Source of the DNA: an uncultured bacterium
Lineage (GTDB): Bacteria > Bacillota > Clostridia > Oscillospirales > Oscillospiraceae
Reading direction: 5' to 3'
Length of the DNA stretch: 64,000 nucleotides
Assembly (NCBI GenBank): GCA_949840775.1
Contig: CATKXO010000004.1
Span: 40,826-104,825, forward strand
Position numbers and translations under genes: made by a program. Positions 1,405-52,608 of this stretch are shown piece by piece (the first letter of the stretch is position 1; the number at the start of each line of letters is the position of its first letter). Below the pieces are notes generated by a model. The model did not search any database. It was not told the DNA's origin and saw only the letters and a list, made by a program, of their open reading frames with translations.

Positions 1405-1542
1405 AAAAAAGCCTCCTTTCGCAAAGGGAGGTGGCATTTGCGAAGCAAATGACGGAGGGTTTCCTCTAAAGATACAGATACGTTTCAACAGAAGCCCCCC
1501 CCCACCCGGCTTCGCCGGGAGCCCCCTTTGCGAAGGGGGCCT
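1405..1542. repeat. MITE-like dispersed repeat, copy 1
   Basis: About 140 bp, nearly identical to 4630-4771. The ends are imperfect terminal inverted repeats around CTTTCGCAAAGGG / CCCTTTGCGAAGGGG. Inside are two further hairpins, ATTTGC-gaa-GCAAAT and CCCGGC-ttc-GCCGGG. It has no coding capacity of its own. It lies between alaS and the DUF4250 gene. Confidence 0.85.
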
Positions 1543-3003: not shown

Positions 3004-3032
3004 TTGCATATACTAGGGAGCGGTGGTATAAT
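3004..3032 (+). promoter_or_regulatory. Promoter for candidate antisense RNA
   Basis: TTGCAT-N17-TATAAT, a near-consensus sigma-A promoter pointing towards the shared hairpin at 3077-3108. The only thing downstream before that hairpin is about 70 nt of non-coding sequence. Confidence 0.7.
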
Positions 3033-3038
3033 AAACGT

Positions 3039-3110
3039 CGCCAGAAGTCAATCAAAACCAAGGCAGACACGCAAAAGGGAACCCGGAGGCTGCATCCTCC
3101 GGGTTCCCAT
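3039..3110 (+). ncRNA. Candidate antitoxin RNA of par-like locus
   Basis: Predicted transcript from the 3004-3032 promoter to the hairpin at 3077-3108. It contains AAGTCAATCAAAA (3045-3057), which recurs at 3192-3204 inside the convergent small gene. The RNA can therefore pair with the peptide mRNA both at the repeat and at the common terminator. The extent is inferred from promoter and terminator only. Confidence 0.55.
3077..3108. terminator. Shared bidirectional hairpin of par-like locus
   Basis: Perfect 13-bp stem GGGAACCCGGAGG / CCTCCGGGTTCCC with a 6-nt loop, placed between two convergent transcripts. The minus strand carries a short TTTT after the stem. The plus strand has no clear T-run. 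Confidence 0.75.
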
Positions 3111-3115
3111 TGTGC

Positions 3116-3220
3116 TTATGGGTTCTTGCGGTGCCGGCTAAGCCACTTGCTCACATAGCTGCCAACTATGCTCGCTCCTACCGACACCAAAAAGTCAATC
3201 AAAAGCTCCAAGACATTCAC
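3116..3220 (-). CDS. Small hydrophobic peptide, candidate type I toxin (Fst/Ldr-like)
   Basis: A 34-residue ORF with GTG start: MNVLELLIDFLVSVGASIVG as a single predicted membrane helix, then a basic, polar tail ending in SRHRKNP. The Shine-Dalgarno GAAGGGGG lies just upstream and a TTGCGA-N17-TATAAT promoter is at 3248-3276. Short TM-plus-charged-tail peptides of this size are typical of type I toxins such as Fst (33 residues). The convergent antisense transcript, the shared terminator and the repeated 13-mer support this. Toxicity is inference; the peptide could instead be an uncharacterised membrane microprotein. Confidence 0.65.
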   Translation of the reverse strand: MNVLELLIDFLVSVGASIVGSYVSKWLSRHRKNP

Positions 3221-3247
3221 CCCCTTCCCGGGGAAGAACCCAAAACG

Positions 3248-3276
3248 ATTATACCAGCTTTCGACAGCCTTCGCAA
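3248..3276 (-). promoter_or_regulatory. Promoter of small-peptide gene
   Basis: TTGCGA-N17-TATAAT read on the minus strand, about 28 bp upstream of the GTG start. It is divergent from the hinT-type promoter at 3294-3321. Confidence 0.7.
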
Positions 3277-3352: not shown

Positions 3353-3691
3353 ATGTCCGACTGTTTATTCTGCAAGATTGCCGCCGGGGAGATTCCGTCC
3401 AGCAAGGTCTACGAGGACGACCAGTGCCTGGCCTTCTACGACATCGACCCCCAGGCCCCCACCCACTTCCTGGTGATCCCCAAGGCCCACATCGGCTCGG
3501 TGGCCGAAGTCACGGAGGACAACGCCGCAGTGGTGGCCCACATCTTCACCGTCATTGCCCAACAGTGCAAAAAGCTGGGGCTGGACAGCTACCGGGTGGT
3601 GTCCAACATCGGGGAGCAGGCGGGGCAGAGCGTGCCACACCTGCACTTCCACGTCCTGGCCGGCCGGGATATGACCTGGCCTCCGGGCTGA
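3353..3691 (+). CDS. HIT family (HINT-like) nucleotide-binding hydrolase
   Basis: A 112-residue histidine-triad protein. Family members hydrolyse purine nucleotide phosphoramidates and related adenylates in the cytosol. The N-terminal DCLFCKIAAGEIPS carries the CxxC seen in bacterial HINT proteins. The catalytic triad is in SVPHLHFHVLAGR near the C-terminus, and the length matches the family. The start at 3353 follows GGAGGT at 7-nt spacing, and the promoter at 3294 lies just upstream. The following LysR gene starts 7 bp downstream and may be cotranscribed. Confidence 0.93.
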   Translation: MSDCLFCKIAAGEIPSSKVYEDDQCLAFYDIDPQAPTHFLVIPKAHIGSVAEVTEDNAAVVAHIFTVIAQQCKKLGLDSYRVVSNIGEQAGQSVPHLHFHVLAGRDMTWPPG

Positions 3692-3698
3692 GCGGGCC

Positions 3699-4631
3699 AT
3701 GTTCGTCAAAAACCCGGAGTACTTTCTCACCATCGTCAAGGAGCGGAGCATCTCCAAGGCGGCGGAGCGGCTGTATCTGTCCCAGCCCTACCTGAGCCAG
3801 TACCTGGCCAAGCTGGAGGGCAGCCTGGGGGTGGTCCTGCTGGACCGCTCCCACTCCCCCCTGAAGCTCACCCCGGCGGGGGAGCTGTTCCACGCCTACC
3901 TGGAGCGGCAGGGCTTTCTGGACCGGCAGCTGGTCAGCGACCTGCGGGACCTGCAAAACAAAAAGCGGCCCCTGCTCCATATCGGGGTGTCCCCCTGGCG
4001 GGGGGCCACCCTGCTGCCCGACATCCTGCCCCTGTTTGAGGCCCAGTACCCCGACGTGCAGGTGGTCCTCCACGAGGCCCCGGTGCCCGAGCTGGGGGAG
4101 CTGGCAGAGGCCAATGTCATCGACTTCTGCGTAATGCAGCCCCCCGGGGACCTGTCGGAGCTGACCTATGAGCCGGTGATGCAGGAGCGAATATTTCTGG
4201 TGGCCCACCGGGACCACCCCCTGCTCCAGGGCCAGGACAGCGGCTGGGACGCCCCCAGGCCCTTCCCAGACCTGCGGCTGCTGGAGCACGAGCGGATCAT
4301 CATGCTCCCCGCCGGCTGGCGGCTGGCCCGGCTGCTGTACAACACCTTCTCTGTCCACAGCGTGGAGCCCCAGAACATCCTGGTCACCACCAACACCACC
4401 ACCGCCATCAACCTGGCGGCGGAGAAGATGGGCTTTGCCTTTTTGCAGGAGAGCGGCGTCCCCCGTACCCCTTACCTGGACCGGCTGGCCTGCTTCACCG
4501 TGGGCGAGCCGCCCCTGACCTGCCCGCTGGCGGTGGTCTATAAGAAAAACGGTTTCCTCTCCCCGGCGGCCCGGACCTTCATCGACCTGATTCGGGAGTT
4601 TTACAGCCGGTATGACCGGACAAGCGAGTAA
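3699..4631 (+). CDS. LysR family transcriptional regulator
   Basis: A 310-residue regulator. The N-terminal winged helix (about residues 1-60) contains ERSISKAAERLYLSQPYLSQ, the LysR recognition helix. It is followed by a coiled linker and a periplasmic-binding-type effector domain (residues 90-300). The effector is not readable from sequence. It begins 7 bp after the HIT gene, an unusual position for a LysR regulator, which is more often divergent from its target. A MITE-like repeat starts at its stop codon and can supply a terminator. Confidence 0.93.
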   Translation: MFVKNPEYFLTIVKERSISKAAERLYLSQPYLSQYLAKLEGSLGVVLLDRSHSPLKLTPAGELFHAYLERQGFLDRQLVSDLRDLQNKKRPLLHIGVSPWRGATLLPDILPLFEAQYPDVQVVLHEAPVPELGELAEANVIDFCVMQPPGDLSELTYEPVMQERIFLVAHRDHPLLQGQDSGWDAPRPFPDLRLLEHERIIMLPAGWRLARLLYNTFSVHSVEPQNILVTTNTTTAINLAAEKMGFAFLQESGVPRTPYLDRLACFTVGEPPLTCPLAVVYKKNGFLSPAARTFIDLIREFYSRYDRTSE

Positions 4632-4771
4632 AAAAGCCTCCCTTCGCAAAGGGAGGTGGCATTTGCGAAGCAAATGACGGAGGGTTTCCTCTAAAGAGAC
4701 AGATACGTTTCAACAGAAGAAAACCCCCACCCGGCTTCGCCGGGAGCCCCCTTTGCGAAGGGGGCCTTTTT
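4630..4771. repeat. MITE-like dispersed repeat, copy 2
   Basis: Second copy of the roughly 140-bp element of 1405-1542, same orientation. It starts within the LysR stop codon. Its right-hand hairpin ends in GGGGCC followed by five T, so this copy can act as the LysR terminator. Confidence 0.85.
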
Positions 4772-5689: not shown

Positions 5690-5915
5690 CTATCAGCGCG
5701 AGGAACGGAAAAGTAGCGTCCCGCCCAACGGACAGAGAGGGCCCCTCACCGGCTGCAAGGGGGCTTACAGCGGGGAGACGTGAAGTGCGTCCGGGAGTGC
5801 GGCGGGTAATGCCGTCCGGTTTGGCCCCGATAGCGGCCAATCGAGTGAAACTAAGAGTGGAACCGCGAGTGATCGCCTCTTACGCCCATATGGGCGTAGG
5901 AGGTTTTTGTTTTTG
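5690..5915 (+). promoter_or_regulatory. T-box leader, probably cysteine-specific
   Basis: Contains the T-box core AGAGTGGAACCGCG (5854-5867). A terminator follows: CCTCTTACGCCC (5876-5887) pairs with GGGCGTAGGAGG (5892-5903), then TTTTTGTTTTT. A TGC triplet in GAAGTGCGTCC sits where the specifier would be expected. Uncharged tRNA-Cys should stabilise the antiterminator and allow reading into cysE and cysS. The T-box class is certain; the specifier is inferred from TGC and the downstream genes. Confidence 0.9.
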
Positions 5916-6005: not shown

Positions 6006-6653
6006 ATGCTCAAAGCCTTAAATGAGACCCTGGAGGCCTACCAGCGCCGGGACCCGGCGGCCCGGTCCAAGCTGGAGATCCTCCTGCTGTACCAGGGGGT
6101 CCATGCCACCCTGTATCACCGGCTGGCCCACTGGCTATACTGTCACAAATGGAAATTCCTGGCCCGGGTCATCTCCCAGTGGTCCCGGTTCTGGACGGGC
6201 ATCGAGATTCACCCTGGGGCCAGAATCGGCCGGCGGTTTGTCATTGACCACGGCATGGGCATCGTCATCGGCGAGACCGCTGAGGTGGGGGACGACGTGC
6301 TCATCTACCACGGCGTCACCCTTGGGGGCACCGGCAAGGACCAGGGCAAGCGCCACCCCACCATCGGCAACAACGTGCTCATCTCCTGCGGGGCCAAGGT
6401 GCTGGGGCCCTTTAAGGTGGGGGACAACGCCCGCATCGCCGCCAACGCCGTGGTCCTCTCCGAGGTCCCGGAGGACGCCACCGCCGTGGGCATCCCCGCC
6501 CAGATCGTCCGCATTGCCGGCCGGGCTACCCACTACGCCGACGACGTGGACCAGACCAGTGTCAACAACCCCACCCTGGAGAAAATCGGTGCCTTGGCCG
6601 CCCGGATAGAGGCGCTGGAAAAATTGTTGGAGGAGAAGGAACATGCTGTTTGA
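6006..6653 (+). CDS. cysE: Serine O-acetyltransferase
   Basis: Transfers acetyl from acetyl-CoA to L-serine to give O-acetylserine, the first committed step of cysteine synthesis. The 215-residue protein has an N-terminal helical domain (1-60) and a left-handed beta-helix of hexapeptide repeats. Diagnostic motifs are IHPGARIGRRFVIDHG, IVIGETAEVGDDVLIYHGVT and GGTGKDQGKRHPTIG. The length suits the short Gram-positive CysE type. It is expressed from the Cys T-box and overlaps the VOC gene by 11 nt. Confidence 0.95.
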   Translation: MLKALNETLEAYQRRDPAARSKLEILLLYQGVHATLYHRLAHWLYCHKWKFLARVISQWSRFWTGIEIHPGARIGRRFVIDHGMGIVIGETAEVGDDVLIYHGVTLGGTGKDQGKRHPTIGNNVLISCGAKVLGPFKVGDNARIAANAVVLSEVPEDATAVGIPAQIVRIAGRATHYADDVDQTSVNNPTLEKIGALAARIEALEKLLEEKEHAV

Positions 6654-7030: not shown

Positions 7031-7105
7031 GTAGGGGCCGCCCCCCTGGGCGGCCCGCAAGATGTGGAGTTATAAAAATGGGCCGCCGAGGGCGGCGGCC
7101 CCTAC
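7031..7105. repeat. GTAGGGGC-type inverted-repeat doublet
   Basis: Left half begins GTAGGGGCCGCCC; right half ends GGCGGCGGCCCCTAC. The two halves are reverse complements apart from their cores and are separated by about 25 bp of unrelated sequence. It lies between the VOC gene and cysS. Confidence 0.8.
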
Positions 7106-7122
7106 AAAATGGAGGAAAGAAT

Positions 7123-8568
7123 ATGCTGCTTTACAATTCTGCCACTCACAAGAAAGAAGAGTTCACCACCCACACCCCCGGCCACGTGGAGATGTACACC
7201 TGCGGGCCTACGGTGTACCACTTCGCCCACATCGGCAACCTGCGGTCCTACATCATGGAGGACGTGCTGGAGAAGTTCCTGCGGTACGACGGCTACGACG
7301 TGAACCGAGTGATGAACATCACCGACGTGGGCCACCTGTCCAGCGACGCCGACACCGGCGAGGACAAGATGCTCAAGGGGGCCAAGCGGGAGCACAAGAC
7401 CGTAATGGAGATCGCCCAGTACTACACCGACGCCTTCTTCGACGACTGCCGCAAGCTGAACATCAAGACCCCCGACGTGGTCCAGCCCGCCACCGGCCTC
7501 ATCGACGAGTTCATCAAGATCGTGTCCGGCCTTATCGACAAGGGCTACGCCTACGTGGCCGGGGGCAATGTGTATTTCGACACCTCCAAGCTGGAGCGGT
7601 ACTATGTCTTCAACGACCACGACGAGGAGGATTTGGCGGTGGGCGTCCGGGAGGGCGTGGAGGAGGACCGGAACAAGCGGAATAAGAACGACTTTGTCCT
7701 CTGGTTCACCAAGAGCAAGTTTGAGGACCAGGCCCTGAAGTGGGACTCCCCCTGGGGGGTGGGCTACCCCGGCTGGCATATCGAGTGCTCCGGTATCTCC
7801 CTGAAATACAACGGCGAGTACCTGGACCTCCACTGCGGCGGCATCGACAACGCCTTCCCCCACCACACCAACGAGATCGCCCAGAGTGAGAGCTACATCG
7901 GCCACCCCTGGTGCAAGCAGTGGTTCCACGTCCACCACCTGAATACCAACTCCGGGAAAATGTCCAAGTCCAAGGGGGAGTTCCTCACCGTCTCCCTGCT
8001 GGAGGAGAAGGGTTACGACCCCCTGGTCTACCGCTTCTTCTGCCTCCAAAGCCACTACCGCAAGGGGCTGGTCTTTTCCTGGGAGAACCTGGACAACGCC
8101 ACGGTGGCGTTCAACAAGTTGATTGCCAAAATCGCCGCCTTGGATACGGCCGTTGAGAGTATGGATCTGGCGGAATATGAAAGGCTGGATGAGAAATTCC
8201 GGAAAGCTCTGGGAAACGATCTGAGTACCTCTCTGGGAATTACAGTCCTCTACGATGTACTGAAGTCCCCGGCCAATGATACGACCAAGCTGGCCCTGCT
8301 GGAGCATTTCGACCAGGTGCTGTCCCTGTCCCTGCTGGACAAGGCGGCGGTCGTCCGGGAGGAGCAGAAGAAGCAGAAGACCGCCTCCCAGGGGGGGTAC
8401 ACCATCACCGGCGAGGGGGACCCCGCTGTGGACGCCCTGGTTCTCCAGCGGTACGAGGCCAAGAAAGCCAAGAACTTCGCCGAGGCCGACCGCATTCGGG
8501 ATGAACTGAGGGCGCAGGGGATTGAGGTCACCGATGTGCCCGGCGGCGCGAGCTGGAAGAAGCTGTGA
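7123..8568 (+). CDS. cysS: Cysteinyl-tRNA synthetase
   Basis: Attaches cysteine to tRNA-Cys. The 481-residue class I synthetase has CGPTVYHFAHIGNLR carrying the HIGH-type motif and a zinc Cys, further zinc ligands in HIECSGIS and CGGIDNAFPHHTNE, and the KMSKS loop as GKMSKSKGEF. The C-terminal helical anticodon domain ends near residue 480. ATG at 7123 follows GGAGG; an in-frame start upstream falls inside the repeat. It shares the Cys T-box transcript with cysE, so supply and use of cysteine respond to the same tRNA. Confidence 0.97.
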   Translation: MLLYNSATHKKEEFTTHTPGHVEMYTCGPTVYHFAHIGNLRSYIMEDVLEKFLRYDGYDVNRVMNITDVGHLSSDADTGEDKMLKGAKREHKTVMEIAQYYTDAFFDDCRKLNIKTPDVVQPATGLIDEFIKIVSGLIDKGYAYVAGGNVYFDTSKLERYYVFNDHDEEDLAVGVREGVEEDRNKRNKNDFVLWFTKSKFEDQALKWDSPWGVGYPGWHIECSGISLKYNGEYLDLHCGGIDNAFPHHTNEIAQSESYIGHPWCKQWFHVHHLNTNSGKMSKSKGEFLTVSLLEEKGYDPLVYRFFCLQSHYRKGLVFSWENLDNATVAFNKLIAKIAALDTAVESMDLAEYERLDEKFRKALGNDLSTSLGITVLYDVLKSPANDTTKLALLEHFDQVLSLSLLDKAAVVREEQKKQKTASQGGYTITGEGDPAVDALVLQRYEAKKAKNFAEADRIRDELRAQGIEVTDVPGGASWKKL

Positions 8569-24616: not shown

Positions 24617-24715
24617 AGTTTGTCTCCTTGGTCGTATAGAGTCAGGGAACAGTTTACCGCAATTTTTGGAAAAAGTCCAGTTGGCTTTTTGTCAAAGCTG
24701 TGGTATGATATCTCC

Positions 24716-24870
24716 GCCCCAGGTGCCCGGATGGGAAAATCCAGGAGAATAGGGAAGAAATACACGGTCCCGCCGCTGTGAGGGGGGAGCCGGGCCTCAA
24801 GACGCCACTGGGAAACCGGGAAGGCGAGGCCGGGCGGTGAGCCTCAAGTCAGAAGACCTGCCTGGGGAAA
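24716..24870 (+). promoter_or_regulatory. Cobalamin riboswitch
   Basis: Carries the conserved B12-box elements in order: AATAGGGAAG, CCCGCCGCTGTGA, GCCACTGGG, GGGAAGGCG and AAGTCAGAAGACCTGCC. It lies 40 bp upstream of the DUF4430 gene, so binding of adenosyl- or related cobalamin should repress it and the following transporter gene. Confidence 0.95.
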
Positions 24871-24906
24871 TATACTGACGCCGCGAGAGACGGCGAGGAG
24901 GTACGT

Positions 24907-45389: not shown

Positions 45390-45478
45390 TGGCGCAGCGG
45401 GAGGGATTCGAACCCTCGTGGGATTGCTCCCAAACTGATTTCGAGTCAGCCCCGTTATGACCACTTCGATACCGCTGC
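45390..45478 (-). tRNA. tRNA-Ser(CGA)
   Basis: 89 nt including encoded CCA. Acceptor stem GCAGCGG / CCGCTGC, discriminator G. Anticodon loop CTCGAAA gives anticodon CGA (complement at 45441-45443). A long variable arm (class II, as for Ser) and the T-arm GGTTCGAATCC are present. Reads UCG codons. Confidence 0.93.
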
Positions 45479-52349: not shown

Positions 52350-52608
52350 CAGCAAATGCAATGAAGGGGAAAAAGACAGCTTTCTCCCACGCAGAGAGCC
52401 GGCGGGCGGTGTGAGCCGGTGTGGAGCAGCTGTGGATGACTGGCCCCTGAGCAGCCTGCCTGAACCGCAGTAGGGCAGGACGTATGGCCCCGTTACCGGC
52501 CGAAGCCTTGTTGGAGGCTGTGAGGGCGGGCAGGTAACTGTCCGCTGAACCAGGGTGGTACCGCGTGTAATGAACACGCCCCTGACTTGAAAAAGTCGGG
52601 GGCTTTTT
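52350..52608 (+). promoter_or_regulatory. T-box leader upstream of zinc-ribbon gene and leuA
   Basis: T-box AGGGTGGTACCGCG (52552-52565). Terminator stem GCCCCTGACTT / AAGTCGGGGGC (one G-U) at 52578-52603, then TTTTT. Stem I shows AGAGAGCCGG and GGTGTGAGCCGG. The specifier is not certain: GATGACTGGCC contains CTG (Leu), in register with the TGC of the cysE T-box, but ACT, GAC and TGG cannot be excluded. leuA downstream favours leucine. Confidence 0.88.

What the first reader, a model, noticed from the sequence alone, without database searches (positions are those of the whole stretch)
3004..3276. par(pAD1)-like type I toxin-antitoxin candidate
A 34-residue TM peptide gene (3116-3220, minus) and a short plus-strand RNA (about 3039-3110) have convergent near-consensus promoters. 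They share one 13-bp bidirectional hairpin. Both carry the same 13-mer AAGTCAATCAAAA (3045-3057 and 3192-3204), which in the peptide mRNA lies in codons 7-11. Convergent transcription, a shared terminator and direct repeats allowing 5' pairing are the defining layout of the Fst/RNAII par locus of plasmid pAD1. I know of no description of it in this type of chromosome.
Basis: partly seen in the sequence, partly recalled or inferred. Interest (0 to 1): 0.85.

Follow-up and report, generated by a model that had tools for sequence, protein, structure and literature searches.

The report
Par-like RNA-guarded toxin peptide module
A gut bacterium's chromosome carries a tiny gene pair in which a short antisense RNA probably silences a small membrane-poisoning peptide; it belongs to a large, unannotated family of such pairs, related to a system known from enterococcal plasmids, in which each RNA appears tailored to its own peptide gene.

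Summary
The layout is that of par(pAD1): convergent promoters, a shared hairpin, two repeats that let a roughly 77-nt antisense RNA cover the toxin's start region. In 102 distinct homologous loci, 69 have a repeat of at least 10 bp between toxin 5' end and antitoxin region, against 1.3% of non-cognate pairings; 87 have an antisense promoter, against 3.1% of shuffles. In 51 of 54 copies the strongest predicted antitoxin of the genome is the copy's own. The window peptide meets no Pfam or NCBIfam cut-off, but three bridge peptides match both its family and the Fst model. The family is common (124 of 189 genomes of one bacterial family); my searches of an open-access library found no description. 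Best reading: a new subfamily of par-type type I toxin-antitoxin modules. Toxicity and both transcripts are inferred, not shown.

The parts
3116..3211 (-). toxin peptide ORF, 31 aa (LELLIDFLVSVGASIVGSYVSKWLSRHRKNP as read, TTG start), single hydrophobic helix-like stretch plus basic tail
   Evidence: start set by homology and SD; pooled pN/pS 0.32 in the window type
3218..3225 (-).
3248..3276 (-). toxin promoter TTGCGA-17-TATAAT, extended TGG
3070..3241 (-). predicted toxin mRNA (about 172 nt); 5' end GGGTTCTT can pair with AAGAACCC at the last codons, and CCCC with the SD
   Evidence: predicted TSS and folds
3004..3032 (+). antitoxin promoter TTGCAT-17-TATAAT, extended TGG
3039..3115 (+). predicted antisense RNA antitoxin (about 77 nt)
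   Evidence: predicted ends
3045..3057 (+). direct repeat b, antitoxin copy
3192..3204 (+). direct repeat b, toxin copy (codons 3-7)
3058..3070 (+). direct repeat a (imperfect), antitoxin copy
3208..3220 (+). direct repeat a (imperfect), toxin copy over start codon and end of SD
3077..3108 (.). shared bidirectional terminator hairpin, 13 bp stem, 6-nt loop

Best explanation
A chromosomal type I toxin-antitoxin module of the par/Fst kind. The minus strand gives a roughly 172-nt mRNA for a 31-residue membrane peptide with a basic tail. The plus strand gives a roughly 77-nt antisense RNA from a convergent promoter. The RNAs are fully complementary in their shared terminator hairpin. In addition two direct repeats (DRa over the Shine-Dalgarno tail and start codon, DRb over codons 3-7) let the antisense RNA cover the toxin's ribosome entry site although it is transcribed from beyond the end of the gene. 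Inferred steps: contact at the terminator loops, spread to DRa/DRb, block of translation; if antitoxin synthesis stops, the shorter-lived RNA decays and the peptide damages the membrane. The peptides probably form a branch of the Fst family with a membrane helix shortened by about one turn. The repeats differ between loci, so each antitoxin should act mainly on its own toxin. Shown by sequence: the anatomy, its conservation in most loci tested, constraint on the peptide, predicted pairing specificity. Inferred: transcription, RNA stabilities, toxicity, physiological role.
For: Cognate repeat of at least 10 bp in 69 of 102 distinct loci against 1.3% of non-cognate pairings; codons 16 to end give 0 of 102. 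Hairpin and antisense promoter in the expected order in 88 of 102; over those 88, cognate duplex -39.6 against -20.2 kcal/mol; own antitoxin best in 51 of 54 copies in the 10 genomes with at least 3 usable copies. Antisense promoter in 87 of 102 against 3.1% of shuffles. Two repeat blocks, -9..+4 and +7..+20 (88 loci). Window against its G025 relative: two changes in the toxin repeat, TTTTGATTGACTT to TTTTAATCGACTT, are both mirrored in the antitoxin copy. pN/pS 0.32 in the window type. Fst loci treated alike: at least 10 bp in 17 of 20 against 1.8%; without the three bridge peptides 14 of 17. Bridge peptides match both families. A family-type peptide lies about 480 bp from an Fst gene in one genome. 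Weak match to NCBI's C. difficile type I toxin model: window 16.6 bits against a cut-off of 60, 8 of 34 members, best E 0.0015.
Against: 33 of 102 loci lack a repeat of at least 10 bp, 45 of 102 are matched as well or better by some other locus's downstream region, and several Selenomonadaceae loci (L131, L137, L161, L166) show neither repeat nor a good antisense promoter in the stretch read; in a second set 12 of 23 lack the repeat. The window and G005 differ at one place in the toxin repeat that is not mirrored in the antitoxin. SD pairing in the mRNA is no higher than with shuffled leaders (0.71 against 0.70, higher in 37 of 73 loci; window itself 0.70 against 0.81). No direct sequence match to Fst: profile comparison probability 2.7%, window peptide -3.1 bits with my Fst profile, and no family member scores above shuffled peptides there. 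No U-turn motif (YUNR, named in PMC7472228) in the loop by reading. The review gives about 230 and about 40 nt for the pAD1 RNAs, other than the 172 and 77 nt predicted here. In the window's own genome 2 of 6 copies pair better with another copy's antitoxin. No expression or toxicity data.
Confidence: 0.85

Rival explanations
1. The same RNA circuit controls a small membrane protein that is not a toxin, e.g. a modulator of a membrane complex or transporter; the antisense RNA then sets its dose.
For: Chromosomal and multi-copy, beside housekeeping genes (HIT gene; a peptidyl-tRNA hydrolase-like ORF named by eye); no toxicity data; apart from loss of plasmid stability no phenotype is known for deletion of any Fst/Ldr system according to PMC7472228 (passage read).
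Against: Layout shared with Fst loci, presence/absence polymorphism at one site, 18 loci on viral contigs, per-locus pairing.
Confidence: 0.1
2. A separate type I family like the C. difficile CD0956.2/CD2517.1 systems, with the par-like layout evolved independently.
For: The only NCBIfam match of the window peptide is the C. difficile toxin model (E 0.0078, below cut-off); those genes are convergent too (PMC6563280, passages read).
Against: The passages read describe a long overlapping complementary region for C. difficile and mention no direct repeats (I did not test the C. difficile loci); DRa/DRb and the Fst bridge peptides point to par.
Confidence: 0.12
3. Chance: an open frame over a bidirectional terminator between two genes, with a coincidental 13-mer.
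For: 13-mer repeats within 200 bp occur at 4 places in the window.
Against: Conserved peptide with pN/pS 0.32, homologues with SD in many genomes, repeats that match own partner and change from locus to locus.
Confidence: 0.01
4. A mobile intergenic repeat (MITE-like) spread for its own sake, the peptide being incidental.
For: Many copies, tandem groups about 330 bp apart, empty site next to HIT.
Against: Constraint on the peptide; copies differ strongly while the pairing is kept. Terminal repeats and target duplications were not tested.
Confidence: 0.03

Closest known systems
par locus of plasmid pAD1 (Fst / RNA I / RNA II) and chromosomal Fst-family loci
   Same: Convergent promoters, shared bidirectional terminator, two direct repeats DRa/DRb that bring the antitoxin onto the start region, membrane peptide of about 30 residues with conserved Trp, locus-specific repeats (layout from PMC7472228, passages read; own test on Fst loci).
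   Different: Window peptide not recognised by the Fst model; Ala in place of Pro in PxxxG and about 4 residues fewer in the helix by alignment; no U-turn motif seen in the loop; predicted RNA lengths differ from those given for pAD1.
C. difficile type I systems (CD0956.2-RCd10, CD2517.1-RCd8, CD2907.1-RCd9; NCBIfam NF047374)
   Same: Convergent small hydrophobic toxin and antisense RNA in a clostridial genome; weak profile match.
   Different: Toxins of 50-53 aa with a long overlapping complementary region (PMC6563280, passages read; other family members there are 34-47 aa, PMC7699646, passages read); window score 16.6 against a 60-bit cut-off.
Ldr of E. coli
   Same: Placed with Fst in one superfamily of peptides (PMC7472228, passage read); tandem copies (recalled).
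   Different: Different RNA regulation according to PMC7472228 (passage read); 3 of 34 members match the Pfam Ldr model, best E 0.065.

Membership tests
par/Fst type I toxin-antitoxin (RNA layout) | convergent promoters for toxin mRNA and antisense RNA | tested here: met
   window both present as sequence; antisense promoter score >=9.5 in 87 of 102 loci against 3.1% of shuffles; toxin promoter >=9.5 in 67 of 102 against 2.8%
par/Fst type I toxin-antitoxin (RNA layout) | shared bidirectional intrinsic terminator | tested here: met
   (window, both strands); hairpin plus promoter in order in 88 of 102 loci
par/Fst type I toxin-antitoxin (RNA layout) | direct repeats DRa and DRb giving a second region of complementarity over the translation start | tested here: met
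   window yes; 69 of 102 loci with >=10 bp, 33 without
par/Fst type I toxin-antitoxin (RNA layout) | 5' stem-loop sequestering the SD | tested here: inconclusive
   window fold shows CCCC-GGGG pairing, but SD pairing is not above shuffled leaders: 0.71 against 0.70 over 73 loci, window 0.70 against 0.81
par/Fst type I toxin-antitoxin (RNA layout) | upstream helix sequestering the mRNA 5' end | tested here: inconclusive
   5' end against own stop-codon region -14.8, non-cognate -12.0, mid-ORF control -10.2; median rank 14 of 74
Fst peptide family (NF033608) | score over the curated cut-off of the Fst model | tested here: not met
   window peptide no hit at E<=10; 1 of 34 members at E 0.98
Fst peptide family (NF033608) | sequence link to Fst through intermediates | tested here: inconclusive
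   for: L248 and L249 peptides over the Fst cut-off (31.3, 29.2 against 26), L256 just under (25.1), and 32.1, 23.4, 36.9 bits with the profile of this family, best shuffle 13.6; against: the three score only -1.7 to 1.8 bits with my own 13-sequence Fst profile
Fst peptide family (NF033608) | PxxxG motif in the helix | tested here: not met
   Ala at the Pro position, G not general
Type I toxin-antitoxin | peptide toxic, RNA antitoxin labile, no toxicity when co-expressed | not testable with these tools
   needs expression and RNA half-lives
C. difficile type I toxin (NF047374) | score over 60-bit cut-off | tested here: not met
   16.6 bits; 8 of 34 members match weakly, best E 0.0015

The most novel reading that the evidence does not exclude
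A large unrecognised branch of par-type toxin-antitoxin modules in anaerobic Firmicutes (Clostridia, Negativicutes): a Fst-like helix shortened by one turn, with up to eight matches per genome and tandem groups, whose per-copy repeats are kept matched by compensating change or conversion, i.e. a natural set of near-orthogonal RNA-toxin pairs, several in one cell and dozens across relatives. Recombination between a module's own repeats (the scar in L227) would be its built-in route of loss, and orphan antitoxins (L221) possible anti-addiction relics.
Probability: 0.4. Interest if true: 0.65.

Novelty: new variant of a known kind. Interest (0 to 1): 0.52.

Why it matters
If true, commensal gut anaerobes carry many unannotated type I modules; annotation pipelines would miss them, since the family libraries give only weak matches for 34 members (best E 0.0015 in NCBIfam, 0.004 in Pfam). 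The set gives a natural library to ask how antisense specificity diversifies among paralogues that sit in one cell, whether chromosomal par modules do anything beyond persisting, and supplies candidate orthogonal RNA switches and counter-selection cassettes for anaerobes with few genetic tools.

Tried and rejected
Direct profile comparison of the family with four Fst peptides was inconclusive (hhalign probability 2.7%, E 0.017). A profile made from 13 Fst peptides scored no family member above shuffled peptides. The search against solved structures gave only a chance match. Rfam gave no match of note at the locus. The group test for a sequestered SD was negative. The alignment mixed orientations and was discarded. 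In one search the 74% mirrored differences (2071 of 2805, 558 non-independent pairs) come from loci pre-selected for at least 10 of 13 matches, so I use only the window's own pairs from it (G025 mirrored, G005 not). The set, meant as a hold-out, is not independent: at least five of its 23 distinct peptides (L268, L270, L272, L275, L280) are identical to ones of the first set (L161, L166, L156, L137, L131). No structure was predicted: a lone helix would not discriminate. Literature: searches listed no paper describing this family in the open-access library held; two founding surveys of Fst-like loci (references 13 and 15 of PMC7472228) are not held, so earlier mention there cannot be excluded.

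Rows dropped: of 78 places, 65 were used (13 weak or broken ones left out); of 96 loci had no usable start; 150 of the remaining 157 were long enough, 102 after removing near-identical coding sequences. itself kept the best 80 of 117 confirmed stretches (78 loci). One search used 88 of the 102; its within-genome part left out 3 copies that it names, copies too near a contig end, and genomes with fewer than 3 usable copies. In one search, 30 places of the long, capped list and 29 of 32 places were used (one with an internal stop and two without a locus left out). Of the HIT matches in 58 of 61 genomes the 30 best-scoring loci were read, not a random sample; for L232 one search printed the wrong stretch, because its HIT gene lies near a contig end.

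Full report
WHAT IS THERE. The window is G000:C4:40826-104825 of a 2.6-Mb assembly; contigs of equal length link relatives of its genus to records named Lawsonibacter, Flintibacter muris and Colidextribacter. Between an anti-sigma-like ORF (2337-2972; named from its place behind an ECF sigma factor, no family match) and a HIT-domain gene (3353-3691) lies a 270-bp unit. One search checks every piece: toxin promoter TTGCGA-17-TATAAT on the minus strand, antitoxin promoter TTGCAT-17-TATAAT on the plus strand, both with an extended TGG; hairpin 3077-3108; the exact 13-mer repeat; and a second, imperfect repeat CCAAGGCAGACAC / CCAAGACATTCAC. In the antitoxin the two repeats are adjacent; in the toxin gene three bases separate them. 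The start codon is most likely TTG 3211: most homologues have a start codon at that place behind AGGAGGTG or GGGGGTG.

A FAMILY. A protein search of 60 relatives gave matches in 22 at E<=10, of which I count 15 with best E<=0.001, all of the same genus; the window's genome has 7 matches, one with an internal stop. Three of these lie head to tail about 330 bp apart. The consensus of 34 sequences is MxxLxxFLVSVxANVxGxYVCKWLDRHxKGx, with Trp invariant. A scan of genome contigs confirmed 117 stretches (78 loci kept), from records named Oscillospiraceae, Ruminococcus, Lachnospiraceae, Selenomonadaceae, Veillonella, a Synergistaceae MAG and others; a scan of viral contigs gave 18 loci, some alike; three annotated-phage-collection records match weakly. 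Frequency with the profile at E<=0.001: 17 of 295 genomes of the order, 9 of 299 of the phylum sample, 124 of 189 genomes of one other family, against 16 of 189 for the Fst model there (8 over its cut-off); the Fst model is found in 2 of 299 genomes of the phylum sample and not in the window's genome. Pfam gives nothing for the window peptide at E<=1 and only weak matches for 34 members (best E 0.004). NCBIfam gives a weak match to the C. difficile type I toxin model.

THE RNA LAYOUT IS CONSERVED AND CO-VARIES. For 102 distinct loci I compared the toxin's 5' region with the DNA behind its own stop codon and with that of every other locus: the longest exact repeat averages 10.8 bp for own and 6.5 for foreign partners; at least 10 bp in 69 of 102 against 1.3%. 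The same test with codons 16 to the end gives none. 57 of 102 loci match their own downstream region better than any other. Averaged over 88 loci the match has two blocks, about -9..+4 and +7..+20 around the start codon, with a trough between them: DRa and DRb. Antisense promoters of score 9.5 or more, mostly with the -10 some 80-120 bases behind the stop codon, are found in 87 of 102 (3.1% in shuffles). Predicted duplexes of toxin 5' region and antitoxin 5' region over 88 loci: -39.6 own, -20.2 foreign; 60 of 88 toxins have their own antitoxin as the best of all 88, and 77 of 88 antitoxins their own toxin; within the 10 genomes with at least 3 usable copies, 51 of 54. The window and its near relative G025 differ at two places in DRb, both silent in the peptide by codon reading and both mirrored in the antitoxin copy; the one difference to G005 is not mirrored. 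The window's antitoxin promoter pattern occurs 8 times in 7 of 61 genomes of the genus, never in the reversed control; 7 lie at copies already listed (one, G005:C50, with an internal stop in the toxin), and the eighth (L299) begins another module by reading.

LIMITS OF THAT. 33 of 102 loci lack a 10-bp repeat; some Selenomonadaceae loci (L131, L137, L161, L166) show neither repeat nor a good promoter in the stretch read. In a second set, from the family rich in these peptides, 11 of 23 distinct loci have it, against 1.4%; that set overlaps the first in at least five peptides and so is no independent hold-out. The layout is typical, not universal. In the window's own genome 2 of 6 copies pair better with a neighbour's antitoxin.

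KINSHIP WITH FST. Fst-model loci treated in the same way show the same kind of repeat: 17 of 20 with at least 10 bp against 1.8%; without the three bridge peptides 14 of 17. In one genome a family-type peptide and an Fst peptide lie about 480 bp apart, each with its repeats. Direct comparison is weak. But L248 and L249 peptides exceed the curated Fst cut-off, L256 falls just short, and all three score 23 to 37 bits with the family profile, best shuffle 13.6; with my own small Fst profile, however, they score near zero. Alignment places the difference as about four residues missing from the helix and Ala in place of the Fst Pro. I therefore call it a probable branch of Fst and do not file the window peptide as a member of the Fst model.

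OTHER RNA FEATURES. In the predicted window mRNA the 5' end GGGTTCTT pairs with AAGAACCC in the last codons, and CCCC with the SD, which resembles the upstream helix and 5' stem-loop described for pAD1 (PMC7472228, passages read). Across loci the first is mildly supported (-14.8 own, -12.0 foreign, mid-ORF control -10.2; median rank 14 of 74); the second is not (0.71 against 0.70; window 0.70 against 0.81).

EVOLUTION AT THE SITE. 58 of 61 genus genomes have the HIT gene. Of the 30 best-scoring HIT loci, 10 carry a family toxin directly upstream and divergent, of different peptide types. By reading: L222 joins the anti-sigma-like stop directly to the HIT promoter, an empty site; L227 keeps antitoxin promoter and start of the antitoxin fused to the toxin's start and promoter, without hairpin or ORF, as expected from loss between the repeats; L221 carries an extra promoter-antitoxin-hairpin without toxin. 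Constraint: pooled pN/pS 0.32, 0.35 and 0.46 in three subgroups (pairs not independent, and pairing constrains silent sites too).

LITERATURE. par layout and DRa/DRb function, and the statement that these repeats are poorly conserved and RNA II of pAD1 does not protect against a chromosomal paralogue: PMC7472228 (passages). Clostridial type I systems and the earlier prediction of Ldr/Fst-like sequences in C. bolteae and C. asparagiforme: PMC6563280 (passages). C. difficile prophage systems with cognate-specific antitoxins that tolerate a few mismatches: PMC7699646 (passages). PMC10903887 (passages) mentions Fst toxins generally. Searches listed no paper on this family; founding surveys are not held.

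VERDICT. A real, probably functional par-type type I toxin-antitoxin module, one of a large unannotated subfamily. The mechanism follows from the anatomy; toxicity and both transcripts await experiment. On checking, the Fst link was lowered from met to inconclusive and the main confidence from 0.86 to 0.85, because the second set proved to overlap the first and the bridge peptides fail my own Fst profile.

Noticed in passing
window 5692-5883 (+): T-box leader below Rfam's gathering score (56 bits against 93, E 9.5e-12), ahead of a serine acetyltransferase-like ORF (6006-6653) and, further on, a cysteinyl-tRNA synthetase-like ORF (7078-8568); names of the ORFs by eye.
   Followed up: partly
window 52352-52586 (+); 24704-24879 (+); 45393-45478 (-): T-box leader, cobalamin riboswitch and tRNA over Rfam gathering scores.
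   Followed up: no
window 1405-1542 and about 4630-4767: Intergenic repeat with a GGGAGCCCCCTTTGCGAAGGGGG motif, two copies about 96% identical.
   Followed up: no
G000:C15:51764-52518 (L056, L210): Three tandem copies of the module about 330 bp apart; in at least two the antitoxin begins with a TTGGCGAAAGCCAA-like stem (by reading).
   Followed up: partly
L227 upstream of HIT (genome G003): Scar: antitoxin promoter and 5' end fused to toxin start region, hairpin and ORF gone, as if lost between the module's own repeats.
   Followed up: partly
L221 upstream of HIT (genome G009): Orphan antitoxin unit (promoter, antisense RNA, hairpin) without a toxin next to an intact module.
   Followed up: partly
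L197 (G600:C10:94535-97597): A family-type peptide and an Fst-model peptide about 480 bp apart, both with own repeats.
   Followed up: yes
L248, L249, L256: Bridge peptides matching both the Fst model and the profile of this family.
   Followed up: yes
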